Shown: positions 22,095-60,243 of the stretch, piece by piece
How the letters are laid out: each line of letters begins with the position of its first letter
How positions within the stretch are numbered: position 1 is the stretch's first letter
Assembly: GCA_023818965.1 (NCBI GenBank)
Contig: JAMWCD010000005.1
Span: forward strand, 124,001-188,000
Length of the DNA: 64,000 bases
Source: Candidatus Omnitrophota bacterium
Lineage (GTDB): Bacteria; Ratteibacteria; UBA8468; B48-G9; DTJG01
Direction: 5' to 3'
Made by a program: the position numbers and the translations under genes
Notes under the pieces: generated by a model
The model's database searches: none
Told to the model about the DNA's origin: nothing
What the model saw: the letters and a program-made list of their open reading frames with translations, nothing else

Positions 22095-23220
22095 AATATA
22101 CATCTCTACTCTTAATAATATCTATTATGCTATTAAAAGCATACTCTGCTGATTTTCTTCCTTCAGAAGGTTTATATAAGCTAATTAATCCTGCCTCAAT
22201 CAAACTTTTTAAAACATTATTAGCGGTTATTCTATTAGGTATACCTGTTATCTGTATAAAATTTGCAGTGTTTATTATCGGCTGTCTAAAAAACGCATCA
22301 AGAGCAGGAATAGCATATCGAGACTTAGTCGCCTGTATAAATCTATCCTTCATCTCATTATAAAGATTTAAAAGCTTTTGAGCTTTATCAATATTTATTT
22401 TAGCCTGCTGTATAACTGCTGTTAGAAAGAAATCCACCCAACCGCTCCAATCATTATTTTTAGTTATCATCAATAATCTATCGTAATACTCAGTTCTATT
22501 TTTTTCTAAATACTCACTCAAATAAAAACTTGGTCTTGATATTAAGCCTTTCCAATACAAAAACAAAGGAATTATAAGACGTCCAACTCTACCATTGCCA
22601 TCTTCAAAAGGATGAAGAATTTCAAACTGAGCATGCAATAAACCAAGCTGGACTATTTTATCAGGATAATCATCAGATTTTAAAAACCTTTCCCAGTATT
22701 CAAGATGCTCTGGCAAAATAATAGGGTCTGGTGGTATGTATCTTGCATTTTCAATAGAACTACCGGGTGAGCCAATCCAATTTTGCGTCTTTCTAAACTC
22801 ACCAAGTAACCTATTCTCGCCTCTTACACCAGTTAAAAGAATTTTATGGAGCCCTTTTATAAAAGACAGCGATAACGGTCTCCTCTTTATTTCTTCAGCA
22901 CCAGAGAGCAGTGCCTTTTTATAATTTAGCACTTCTTTCCTGTCGTTTCTCTGTGTATCAGAAATCCCTTTTGAAATTATTCCTGCCTCCTCTTGGAGCA
23001 CATCTTCAAAAGTTGCTTGTGTCCCTTCAATTCTGCTTGATAATACTGCCTCATTTGTCATTAATGGTGCAAGTAAAATATCTGGATTTGGCAGTCCTAC
23101 TAAAATTCCATCAAAAAGAGCAATCCCTCTATTTGATTCTCCAATCTTTCGTATAAAAGGTTCTAACTTCAATCCTTTCGGTGGAAATTCAAGAGGAATA
23201 TAAGGTTTTATTTTATTCAT
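22093..23220 (-). CDS. Fic family AMPylase-like protein
   Basis: A 375-aa Fic-domain protein. The catalytic loop [12 protein letters not shown] (203-214) matches the canonical HPFx(D/E)GNGRxxR, and SSRIEGT (61-67) fits the N-terminal inhibitory helix of self-inhibited Fic proteins. The C-terminal part (about 300-375) looks like a winged helix ([16 protein letters not shown]). It probably AMPylates a protein or regulates its own gene. Inserted between hsdM and hsdS, its ATG overlaps the hsdM stop as ATGA and has GGAGG upstream, so it belongs to the operon. Confidence 0.93.
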
Positions 23221-25790
23221 CGGTCCTCCGATTTATTCTTTCCTATATACCCCAATTTTCTTAGAAACTCATCTAATTTTCTAATTTCTTCATCCCTCTC
23301 CTGTTTTATTGCTACCAATGAAATTTTATATTTATCCCATAGGTTTTCAAAGATTTTAATTAGTTCTTTCTTCTCAGCATTTAGATATTTTTCAAGATAT
23401 TGTTTTATGGTTTGATTAAATTTTTCCAGTAGTAATTCTTTTGCTTCTTGTTCTGTTAAAGAGTTTCTCTTTTGGTCAATTTTCCCTTGTGTAACTTTTA
23501 TAGATTGTTTAGTATTTTTATCTTTTTTATATATCCCTTCCAATTCCTGTGTTTTTGCTTTTAATTTCCTTTTCCATTCATTTAACTCCCTACTTTTATT
23601 GTGAATTTTTTCGTGTAGTTGCCATATCTCCACTATAGTTCTTTTTGCCACTGCTGATAGTAGTGCCCCTTTAAAGTTCTTTTCGGCATTAACAAACTTT
23701 TTATTCCATGTTTGCTCTTTGGGCACAAACAAAATATCTTTTATCTGTTCTTTCAGATATTGAGTAACATTTTTTATAGTTTTCTTTCCATAGTCTTCTT
23801 CATCCCAATCCTCTACTTCTTCAAGAAGTTCATTTAATTCACTTTCAAGTTCTGAAATTTTGCTTTCCAGTTCTTCAATATTTTTTAAATCATCTGCAAA
23901 AAATTTTTTCTGTATTCTTTCATCCTCAATAAGCATATTACTCCATCCTGATGAAACAACGGACTTAAAATCGTATTTTAATTCTTCCCACCAGTTGACA
24001 AATACACCAGCAATCTTAAATTCATCAAGAACTCCCAAAGCGAGAATTTTTTCTTTAAGATTTTTTAATGCTTTATTCCTGAATTCCCAGAGATTATTAT
24101 GTCCCGGGAATTTTTCTATTTCTTTTCCAACTTCAAGCCACCATTCCTGCAACTTTTGAAAATGGGCAGAGAATTTATTTTTAACACTATCGGAAGATTC
24201 TATAATCTCTTTTATATCGCTTTTGTCTTTAATATCCCCTCTAAATTCTAAGGTTTTTTCATCTTTTTCTACTAATAAAACATTTGCCGTGAAACCTAAT
24301 TTTTCTATTTGTGCCTTGTAAATTTCAACCTCTTTTTTTGGCACACCTCCTAAAATGTGATAATGAACACATTCCATTTCAGGGTCAGGAGAGTTGTCAA
24401 CATATCTCCGAATATTTAAATTAAAATCATTTTGCTCAATCTCCTTAATATCAACAAGTTTTGAATACTTTGGTATTTCTAACTTTCTATCAAAAACTGT
24501 AACTATTTTCTCAATATCTTCAGGTCTCAAATAATTTTGATTTCTACCTTCACCATATTCTTTATCTGCATTTATGAAAAAGATTTTGTTTTTGAGATGC
24601 TCGGGTTTTCTTTTATTTATCACAATGATGCAAGCAGGTATACCTGTATTGTAAAATAATTTTTGAGGCAAGCCAATAATTGCCTCTATTATATCGTCTT
24701 TAACTATTCCTTCTCTTATTACTTTTTCCTGTCCGCCTCTAAATAAAACACCGTGTGGCATAACACTTGCCATAATTCCATTTTCTTTTAAACTCGCAAT
24801 CATATGCTGTAAAAACATTAAATCTGCTTTCTTTCCTGTTTCAGGAGTAAAGCCGTATTTAAATCTCTGAGGGAATTCCATATTTGCTCTTGTGTAATTC
24901 TGAGAAAATGGCGGATTTGCTAACACTCTATCAAAGCTTTTTATATAACCATTCTCAAGAAATTTTGGAGTGGTAAGAGTGTCTTCATTTTCTATATGGG
25001 CATCTGGAATGTTGTGAAGAATCATGTTCATCTTACATATTGACCATGTAACACCGTTATTTTCCTGTCCGTAAAGAGCTAAATTTGTTGGATTTTGTCC
25101 TGTTGCCTCAACATATTCTCTTGATTCTATGAGAAATCCACCAGAGCCAACAGTAGGATCATAAACAATCATCCCTTCCTGAGGTTTTACAATCCTAACC
25201 ATTAGTGTCTTTACATGTGATGGTGTATAGAATTCTCCACCCTTTTTACCAGCAGAATCTGCAAATTCTTTTAAAAGATATTCATAAGCAGCACCAAGCA
25301 AATCAGGAAATTCAAAATCTTCGTTTCTTAATCTGTACTTATTAAAGTGATGAATTAAATCAACGAGTTGCTGGTCTTTTAGTTTTGTCTTACCTTTCAC
25401 CGCATTGAAATCTATATGCTTCAAAACACCTTCAAGTTCTGGATTTGCCTCTTCCAATGCGGCAAGGGCTTTATTGAGCTGATTGCCAACATCTTCTTTT
25501 AAGTTCAAGATGTTTTTCCATCTTGCTCGTTCAGGTACAAAAAAAGTGTCACCATAAGAATCTGAATCTTCAATTAAATCATCTATTTCATTTTCAGATA
25601 GCCCCTTACTGATGAATTCATTTCTGATTTCTTCCTGCTTAGATTCAAAGACATCTGAGACACGTTTTAAAAAAAGCATGCCGAAAATGTATTCTTTGTA
25701 TTCTGAGGCATCCATTTTGCCTCTTAAAATATCTGCGGCTTTGAACAGGTATGTTTCAAGTTGTTTTAAGGTTAATTTTCCTTCGTTCAT
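23217..25790 (-). CDS. hsdM: Type I N6-adenine DNA methyltransferase with long C-terminal coiled coil
   Basis: Modification subunit, 857 aa. The N-terminal helical domain is followed by the gamma-class methyltransferase core with motif [10 protein letters not shown] (211-219) and motif IV NPPF (292-295), as expected for adenine-N6 methylation. HsdM is usually about 500-530 aa. Here residues beyond about 480 add charged heptad-rich helices ([20 protein letters not shown] and later Lys/Glu stretches) to the end. AAGGATG lies upstream of the ATG. It heads the hsdM-fic-hsdS-hsdR-ygjP unit. Confidence 0.95.
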
Positions 25791-26005
25791 AGTGGCATCC
25801 TTTTATTTTTTTAAAACCGACTCTTGTATTTGATTTAATTTATTCATATTCAAGCAAGGTAAAGACATTTTACCAGATTTTGGAGTATATAATCAATAAC
25901 ACAAAATTGCAACATAAGAAATCCTTTAAATACTGGCAAATTCTGAGATCCTCTTTTTGCATGCTATTTCTTACCCGTATCTTTCCCCCCCTTTTCAACC
26001 TCCCC

Positions 26006-26110
26006 TTGCATCCCCTCCTTTCAGGAGGGGAAAGAGGGGAGGTGGCAAAGGGGGACGAAGGGGGATTTAAAATAGTTTCTCCCTTTCACAAACGGAGATG
26101 CAAGAAGGAT
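26006..26110 (+). repeat. Hairpin-rich dispersed repeat, copy B
   Basis: Direct copy of 16646-16750 on the other side of the restriction operon, 9360 bp away, and again followed by an imperfect CCCTCC/GGAGGG hairpin (26136-26161). No coding capacity. The remaining non-coding sequence between hsdM and this copy (25791-26005) is AT-rich with no recognisable gene. Confidence 0.8.
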
Positions 26111-26183
26111 TTTTATCTTTATGAAAAATCCACCCCAGCCCTCCTTTGGAAAAGGAGGGAGATCAGGAGGGGAATGAGGGGGT

Positions 26184-26585
26184 ATTCAAATTCCCTTATG
26201 GAAAAATAAAGGGTGGGTGAGGGGATTTGGCGCCCTCGCCTCCACTACGGCTCGGGTCGCCGTCCGCTGGGATTGCTGCGCCAGCTCGCAATCCCTTACT
26301 TCTCTCCAATTCAAATCCCCTTATGGAAAAATAAAGGGTGGGTGAGGGGATTTGGCGCCCTCGCCTCCACTACGGCTCGGGTCGCCGTCCGCTGGGATTG
26401 CTGCGCCAGCTCGCAATCCCTTACTTCTCTCCAATTCAAATCCCCTTATGGAAAAATAAAGGGTGGGTGAGGGGATTTGGCGCCCTCGCCTCCACTACGG
26501 CTCGGGTCGCCGTCCGCTGGGATTGCTGCGCCAGCTCGCAATCCCTTACTTCTCTCCAATTCAAATCCCCTTATGGAAAAATAAA
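26184..26585 (-). repeat. 125-bp tandem repeat carrying the tRNA-His 3' end
   Basis: Three identical 125-bp units (26211-26335, 26336-26460, 26461-26585) plus a 27-bp partial unit at 26184-26210, abutting tRNA-His. In tRNA sense each unit ends with a copy of tRNA-His from C56 to the 3' end. It also carries an inverted copy of the T-loop/T-stem (for example 26560-26571), a perfect GGGATTGC/GCAATCCC hairpin and the motif GACCCGAGCCGTAGTGG followed by AGGCGAGGGCGCC. It is visibly GC-richer than its surroundings. The open frames inside are repeat artefacts. Confidence 0.92.
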
Positions 26586-26586
26586 G

Positions 26587-26660
26587 GGTGGGTGAGGGGA
26601 TTTGAACCCCCGGCATCCAGAGCCACAGTCTGGCGCTCTATCCGCTGAGCTACACCCACC
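26587..26660 (-). tRNA. tRNA-His (GTG)
   Basis: Full cloverleaf on the minus strand: acceptor GTGGGTG/CACCCAC, the His-specific extra G(-1) opposite C73, D stem GCTC/GAGC, anticodon stem CCAGA/TCTGG with loop CTGTGGC (anticodon GTG) and T arm GGGGG-TTCAAAT-CCCCT. CCA is not encoded. The 3' end faces the restriction island and the tandem repeat. Confidence 0.97.
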
Positions 26661-59960: not shown

Positions 59961-60033
59961 GGGCCGTTAGCTCAACTGGCAGAGCAGGGCACTCTTAATG
60001 CCAAGGCTGGAGGTTCGATTCCTCCACGGCCTA
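59961..60033 (+). tRNA. tRNA-Lys (CTT)
   Basis: Acceptor GGGCCGT/ACGGCCT (G1-U72 wobble), D stem GCTC/GAGC, anticodon stem GGGCA/TGCCA with loop CTCTTAA (CTT), T arm GGAGG-TTCGATT-CCTCC, A73. CCA not encoded. A possible promoter lies upstream: TTGAAA at 59905, then TAAAAT at 59927. Confidence 0.96.
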
Positions 60034-60243
60034 TAGTTCCTTTTAAATTTGGGAGGAATCGAATGGGAGCGAAGATGTATAGGTCTGAGCAAGCGAAGAC
60101 CTATGCGGGTGGTTGCTGATGCGATGAATAAAGAGCATCGTATAGCAAGCCCGCCGAGATGTGAGGCGGGCCGGAACGACCCGAGCCGTAGTGGGAGGCG
60201 AGGGCGCCGATTCCTCCACGGCCTATAGTTCTTTTTAAATTTG
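60016..60243 (+). repeat. tRNA-Lys-linked element with duplicated tRNA 3' end
   Basis: A 36-bp direct repeat with one mismatch (60016-60051 and 60208-60243) starts at C56 of tRNA-Lys. Between the copies, 60052-60063 is a perfect 12-nt inverted copy of tRNA nt 54-65. Hairpins ATAGGTCT/AGACCTAT and GCCCGCC/GGCGGGC follow, then the 32-nt motif (60177-60208) shared with the tRNA-His tandem repeat. No ORF of its own; a minus-strand frame through it is an artefact. Confidence 0.88.

What the first reader, a model, noticed from the sequence alone, without database searches (positions are those of the whole stretch)
26184..26585. Three perfect 125-bp copies of the element at tRNA-His
The units are identical over 375 bp and abut the tRNA, while the outer partial unit has one mismatch. 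Perfect identity means recent expansion by recombination or repeated insertion at the same site, like tandem att-site insertions. The 27-bp outer partial stops right at the inverted T-arm.
Basis: seen in the sequence. Interest (0 to 1): 0.55.

Follow-up and report, generated by a model that had tools for sequence, protein, structure and literature searches.

The report
tRNA-end repeats with target-matched arms
The three identical copies beside this bacterium's tRNA-His gene belong to a small, mobile-looking repeat that sits at the tail of many different tRNA genes, copies the tRNA's end so the gene stays whole, and carries an arm matching whichever tRNA it sits in, much like a little-understood repeat long known from E. 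coli.

Summary
The array is real: three identical 125-bp units at tRNA-His plus a partial copy with one mismatch. It is one site of a dispersed family: the same ~80-bp core lies, same strand, right after tRNA genes of 30 anticodon types in this genome and its class (uncultured Omnitrophota/Ratteibacteria). Each unit is an inverted copy of the host tRNA's own T-arm, a core with two covarying hairpins, a direct copy of the host tRNA's 3' end from the T-loop, and a spacer. Nearly identical cores sit at different tRNAs while the inverted arm matches each local tRNA (58 of 77 perfect; 33 mismatches against 145 expected). Sites filled in one species are empty in another, and array length differs between close relatives. 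I read it as a gene-less, T-loop-specific mobile repeat whose flanks and left arm come from the target; the enzyme is unknown. The three His copies share private variants, so in-situ duplication is likelier than three insertions. Closest known kind: the enterobacterial RtT repeat, with the same anatomy at E. coli Tyr, Arg and Lys tRNAs, though the Rfam RtT model does not match. Copy number is unproven without long reads.

The parts
26586..26659 (-). tRNA-His(GTG), the host gene
   Evidence: ARAGORN; Rfam tRNA 68.1 bits
26587..26604 (-). native 3' end of tRNA-His from the T-loop, the stretch duplicated in every unit
   Evidence: sequence
26571..26586 (-). 16-nt locus-specific spacer, repeated at 26446-26461, 26321-26336 and 26196-26211
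   Evidence: sequence
26560..26570 (-). inverted copy of the tRNA-His T-arm (GGGGATTTGAA in tRNA sense), unit 1; repeated at 26435-26445 and 26310-26320
   Evidence: sequence
26470..26570 (-). structured element, unit 1 (tRNA-proximal)
   Evidence: R1 model 102.2 bits
26345..26445 (-). structured element, unit 2
   Evidence: R1 model 102.2 bits
26220..26320 (-). structured element, unit 3
   Evidence: R1 model 102.2 bits
26462..26479 (-). displaced direct copy of the tRNA-His 3' end (18 nt), copy 1
26337..26354 (-). displaced direct copy, copy 2
26212..26229 (-). displaced direct copy, copy 3 (outermost)
26185..26195 (-). outermost inverted T-arm with the single mismatch (26192); the flank diverges just outside it
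59961..60033 (+). tRNA-Lys(CTT), second host gene in the window
60053..60217 (+). second element of the family in the window: one long unit; inverted T-arm 60052-60063, direct tRNA-Lys end copy 60208-60225
   Evidence: R1 60 bits; L006

Best explanation
A small (~105-bp) non-autonomous mobile repeat that targets the T-loop of tRNA genes. Each insertion leaves the tRNA intact and repeats its 3' end (from the T-loop to roughly 0-15 nt past the gene) on the far side of the element. Its left arm is, or soon becomes, the reverse complement of the host tRNA's T-arm, so the unit closes into a hairpin or three-way junction (P1 = inverted arm/T-arm copy, plus hairpins P2 and P3). Shown: T-loop site, target-derived direct repeat, target-matched arm, core sharing among tRNAs of one genome, filled and empty orthologous sites, array-length variation, covarying P2/P3. 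Inferred: the inserted strand is joined by pairing with the T-arm, and the arm is rewritten from the target either during insertion (fold-back copying) or soon afterwards by hairpin-templated correction. The mobilising enzyme was not found. At tRNA-His one inserted unit was then duplicated in place to three copies.
For: All 8 own-genome matches of the array lie at tRNA genes. Of 141 unique tRNA genes in fetched loci 82 were scored element-bearing (at least 2 falsely: L085 Ala, L167 Gln) and 59 not. Inverted arm against own T-arm: 58 of 77 perfect, total 33 mismatches against permuted mean 145, minimum 113 in 2000. Of 27 same-genome pairs with cores at least 96% identical at different tRNAs, 23 have hosts with different T-arms, and in 18 of those both arms match their own host; G007 His and Lys cores are 100% identical with arms differing at 3 of 10 positions. 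Nearest core is in the same genome at another tRNA for 34 of 59, the same tRNA in another genome for 4, neither for 21. Motif TTCRANTCCY in 77 of 82 bearing against 25 of 59 not bearing, p=1e-11. tRNA-Lys(ctt): element in G000 and G007, none in G003 and G004; tRNA-His: none in G011, G013. 15 of 16 predicted pairs have double changes that keep the pair. Private variants shared by the three His units.
Against: No insertion event was observed and no enzyme found: Y1_Tnp, RVT_1 and Cas1 do not track the element. Imperfect arms (19 of 77) and tRNA loci shared across genera leave room for vertical inheritance with compensatory change. 21 of 59 cores have their nearest relative in neither class. The structure was derived from the same 58 units it is counted on. 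RNA expression is unknown.
Confidence: 0.66

Rival explanations
1. Functional tRNA-trailer RNA: the units are inherited with the tRNA operon and selected as RtT-like processed RNAs or pre-tRNA folding switches; arm complementarity is kept by selection on the RNA hairpin.
For: P1, P2 and P3 covary; the minimum-energy fold of tRNA-Leu plus its unit pairs the tRNA 5' acceptor strand with the displaced end copy (z -4.1); E. coli RtT is annotated as an sRNA processed from the tyrT transcript.
Against: The same core at many tRNAs within one genome, empty sites in sister species, and roughly two thirds of tRNA genes lacking it in G000 and G007.
Confidence: 0.17
2. Replication template switching without a dedicated enzyme: fold-back at the T-arm, a jump to an element elsewhere through the conserved T-arm, and a jump back.
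For: Explains together the fixed T-loop boundary, the variable far end of the duplication and the target-derived arm; none of three tested enzyme families co-occurs.
Against: A CTTCTTTGAA-like motif lies in the first 60 nt after the tRNA in 21 of 82 bearing loci against 2 of 59 others, so some element sequence lies left of the arm; dispersal to many sites across a class would be unusual for this process.
Confidence: 0.11
3. Satellites moved by a tyrosine integrase with tandem att sites at the tRNA T-loop.
For: Fixed boundary in the T-loop, intact tRNA, displaced 3' end, tandem arrays.
Against: A crossover with an element-borne attP would leave the donor's 3' end at the new tRNA; at the printed loci the end and spacer are the locus's own while cores are shared. 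The units (about 75-210 bp) hold no gene. I did not run an integrase search.
Confidence: 0.06

Closest known systems
RtT repeats (Rfam RF00391; E. coli tyrT/tyrV), with same-core repeats at argVYZQ and the lys tRNA cluster
   Same: Tandem units after a tRNA gene, each ending in a copy of the tRNA 3' end and carrying an inverted T-stem of that tRNA (Tyr GGGGAAGGAT, Arg AGGGAGGAT, Lys GTGNAGGAT with one mismatch), two hairpins between, variable copy number.
   Different: No Rfam RtT match in the units searched; different core, longer spacers in Tyr and Arg, three tRNA species in the K-12 loci surveyed against 30 anticodon types here.
Casposons (A. boonei, family 2)
   Same: Insert at a tRNA 3' end; that casposase reads a TCAAATC motif, which is T-loop-like (PMC6614799, passages).
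   Different: 14-15-bp TSD, terminal inverted repeats and a casposase gene there; here the duplication starts in the T-loop, varies in length, and there is no gene.
REP/BIME palindromic repeats and their Y1 transposases (RAYT; recalled)
   Same: Short structured intergenic repeats without genes.
   Different: Target is tRNA T-loops; Y1_Tnp is absent from G007, the most loaded genome.
SINE-like retroelements, and T-loop att sites of tRNA-integrating islands (recalled)
   Same: Variable-length target duplication; tRNA 3' end kept or restored.
   Different: No RVT_1 in any of the 10 family-f1 genomes; no integrase gene in the units.

Membership tests
RtT (RF00391) | covariance-model match above gathering score | tested here: not met
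   no RtT hit in L002, L004, L072, in L070, L076, L025 at E up to 5, or at the window array; the E. coli control gave 4 hits
RtT (RF00391) | unit follows a tRNA gene and ends in a copy of its 3' end | tested here: met
RtT (RF00391) | processed RNA released from the tRNA transcript | not testable with these tools
   no RNA data
Casposon | 14-15-bp TSD and a casposase-encoding element | tested here: not met
   direct repeats 9 to 90+ nt, starting in the T-loop; units too short for a gene; Cas1 absent in carriers G008, G015, G019
Retroelement (target-primed) | reverse transcriptase in the host genome | tested here: not met
   RVT_1 in 3 of 35 genomes, none of family f1; genomes are incomplete
REP/RAYT | co-occurring Y1 transposase | tested here: not met
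   0 Y1_Tnp in carriers G000, G003, G007, G008, G010; genomes are incomplete
MITE with fixed terminal inverted repeats | same terminal repeat sequence at every copy | tested here: not met
   terminal arms differ by locus and follow the host tRNA
Tyrosine-integrase tandem att element | element-borne attP end left at the new site | tested here: not met
   ends and spacers are locus-specific for shared cores
Tyrosine-integrase tandem att element | integrase gene that tracks the element | not tested
   no integrase family search was run

The most novel reading that the evidence does not exclude
A dispersed class of gene-less mobile elements, including the enterobacterial RtT repeats, that parasitises tRNA T-loops and carries a rewritable guide: a ~10-nt arm that pairs with the target T-arm, directs insertion, and is recopied from each new target, by a so far unknown enzyme or by the chemistry of the replication fork.
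Probability: 0.2. Interest if true: 0.88.

Novelty: new variant of a known kind. Interest (0 to 1): 0.68.

Why it matters
RtT repeats are known mainly as a feature of the E. coli tyrT operon. The same anatomy, spread over about a third of the tRNA genes of an uncultured lineage with arms customised to each tRNA, points to a general class of tRNA-targeting mobile repeat, and gives a comparative system for how a short element without a gene can come to match its target at each new site.

Tried and rejected
Rfam: at the window array only tRNA, palindrome-driven microRNA-type noise and a sub-threshold BjrC68 hit on the other strand (22.8 bits against 39); not pursued. Plasmid and phage collections: no match to the core. 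Enzyme candidates Y1_Tnp, RVT_1 and Cas1 did not track the element; integrases and DDE transposases were not searched. Hits in two Nonomuraea, one Humibacillus and one Bacteroidetes record from the single genome-contig scan have no tRNA in the fetched stretch and are taken as chance. Among the fetched loci I saw no longer, gene-bearing version. Literature: 10 searches listed no description of tRNA-matched inverted arms or of this repeat in Omnitrophota/Ratteibacteria; I judged from listings, and the library lacks most subscription papers. The 1991 rtT paper is not held. Priority is therefore not established. PMC2884548 (passages) had nothing on this.

Rows dropped: alignment A1 used 58 of 59 short units (L088 left out); long units and loci cut by contig ends were not aligned; the arm test used 77 of 82 loci scored bearing; one search used 59 cores. 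The 82 include at least two false positives (L085 Ala, L167 Gln). The stretches are part of the listed matches, not all. The E. coli survey covers 47 tRNA genes in 11 stretches that I chose, not all K-12 tRNA genes.

Full report
What is there. The window has three identical 125-bp units between 26184 and 26604, abutting tRNA-His on the minus strand, and a fourth, partial copy with one mismatch.

It is not a local oddity. The array sequence has 8 matches in the 1.38-Mb assembly (65% complete): besides the window they lie after tRNA-Leu, -Gly, -Val (two units), -Ser (two units, two matches), -Lys and -Met. Tyr (three units) and Lys(ttt) were found later. The tRNA-Lys(ctt) site (59961) is inside this window too. 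A search with the core alone found it in 19 of 41 genomes. With a covariance model it is in 30 of 35 genomes of the class, 21 of them with best E at or below 1e-10, and in 0 of 74 outside it (model E-values are rough, and weak hits such as G011, G017, G022, G028, G034 may be chance). Named records with the core are mostly Candidatus Omnitrophota MAGs, with Ratteibacteria STE_142 and TA06 ADurb.Bin131; G007 shares contig lengths with the JAMWBU record.

Anatomy. Read in tRNA sense, each unit is: (a) a spacer; (b) an inverted copy of the host tRNA's T-arm, e.g. GGGGATTTGAA at His and GGAGGAATCGAA at Lys; (c) a core of about 80 bp with a hairpin of variable sequence (P2) and a conserved hairpin CCCGAGCC-GTAGTGGGA-GGCGAGGG (P3); (d) a direct copy of the host tRNA's 3' end starting in the T-loop. 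P2 and P3 covary: 15 of 16 predicted pairs have double changes that keep the pair. P1, formed by (b) with (d), shows four Watson-Crick types at one position. Cores are on the tRNA strand and directly downstream, apart from loci at contig ends, the chance hits outside the class, and an odd tRNA-Ser/Pro arrangement.

Why I call it mobile. Cores cluster by genome more than by tRNA: nearest core in the same genome for 34 of 59, the same tRNA in another genome for 4, neither for 21. G007 has one core version at many tRNAs; its His and Lys(ctt) cores are identical, yet each arm matches its own tRNA. Orthologous sites are filled in one species and empty in another: Lys(ctt) filled in G000 and G007, empty in G003 and G004; Gly(gcc)-Thr filled in G000, empty in G007; Tyr-Gly filled in G000 and G003, empty in G004. 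tRNAs scored without the element rarely have the inverted arm: 4 of 59 gave a near match within 80 nt, and three of these look like remnants. The duplicated tRNA end begins at the T-loop and its far end varies: 43 of 66 loci end between 10 nt inside and 13 nt past the tRNA end, and the longer ones take in the arm or more of a unit, as expected of older array copies.

Target choice. TTCRANTCCY is present in 77 of 82 bearing and 25 of 59 non-bearing tRNAs (p=1e-11). The E. coli loci agree: 11 of 11 tRNAs with a direct end copy carry the motif against 16 of 36 without (p=0.001; 47 K-12 tRNA genes in 11 stretches that I chose).

The target-matched arm. 58 of 77 arms match the host T-arm at all 10 positions; total mismatches 33 against a permuted mean of 145. 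Slow compensatory evolution does not explain near-identical cores with different, matching arms, so I infer that the arm is copied from the target, at insertion or by later hairpin correction. A mismatched arm that fits another tRNA (L033: GGGAGTTGAA at a CAAATCCC host) fits carry-over from a donor followed by correction, but a later change in the tRNA would look the same.

How the His array arose. All three units share two variants absent from the other 57 aligned units, so in-situ duplication of one unit is more likely than three insertions. Relatives show array change directly: G007 has two units and G002 one at both His and Ser(tga), with near-identical flanks. G005 has at least two identical units and the start of a third, different one at His. 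Mixed arrays elsewhere suggest that repeated insertion also happens.

Relation to known kinds. E. coli K-12 tyrT/tyrV repeats (RtT; four Rfam hits in L193) have the same plan: GGGGAAGGAT arm, hairpins, AATCCTTCCCCCACCACCA copy. Same-core repeats follow argV/argZ and the lys tRNAs with arms fitting Arg and, with one mismatch, Lys. RtT occurs in 4697 of 5426 E. coli genomes, 1 to 14 places each. One paper, seen in passages only, places RtT-family RNAs beside Asn and Lys tRNAs in A. pleuropneumoniae and says they are released from many tRNA operons (PMC4986893); another, passages only, relates rtT-like sequences to BIMEs and attenuation (PMC2965389). The present family does not match the Rfam RtT model, so I file it as like RtT, not as RtT.

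What is not known. The enzyme, if any. RNA expression. Copy number in reads. Whether the arm is written at insertion or later.

Noticed in passing
L072:919-1150, L034, L114, L103 (end): In G007, G002 and G012 a core sits inside the T-arm of a tRNA-Ser(cga)-like gene, followed by a terminator-like hairpin; in G007 and G002 an intact tRNA-Ser(cga) follows directly, in G012 the start of another tRNA-Ser copy. G004 has the same with a tRNA-Pro 5' part. The linking pattern was found in 4 of 41 genomes.
   Followed up: partly
window 25980-26180: C-rich/G-rich palindromic repeat (CCCCTCCTTTCAGGAGGGG type) just outside the array; similar repeats lie just outside units at L002, L005, L006, L008.
   Followed up: no
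L070:703-877: 6S RNA (Rfam 66.9 bits) directly upstream of the tRNA-Tyr that carries three units.
   Followed up: no
L004 (tRNA-Val array): The displaced tRNA-end copies carry two extra small hairpins inside the acceptor strand, shared by both units.
   Followed up: no
L166 (tRNA-Ala ggc, G000), L140: tRNA followed by spacer and inverted T-arm but no core: possible scars of lost elements.
   Followed up: no
window 23217-25790: Large ORF (857 aa) that reads like a type I restriction DNA methyltransferase subunit, by eye only.
   Followed up: no
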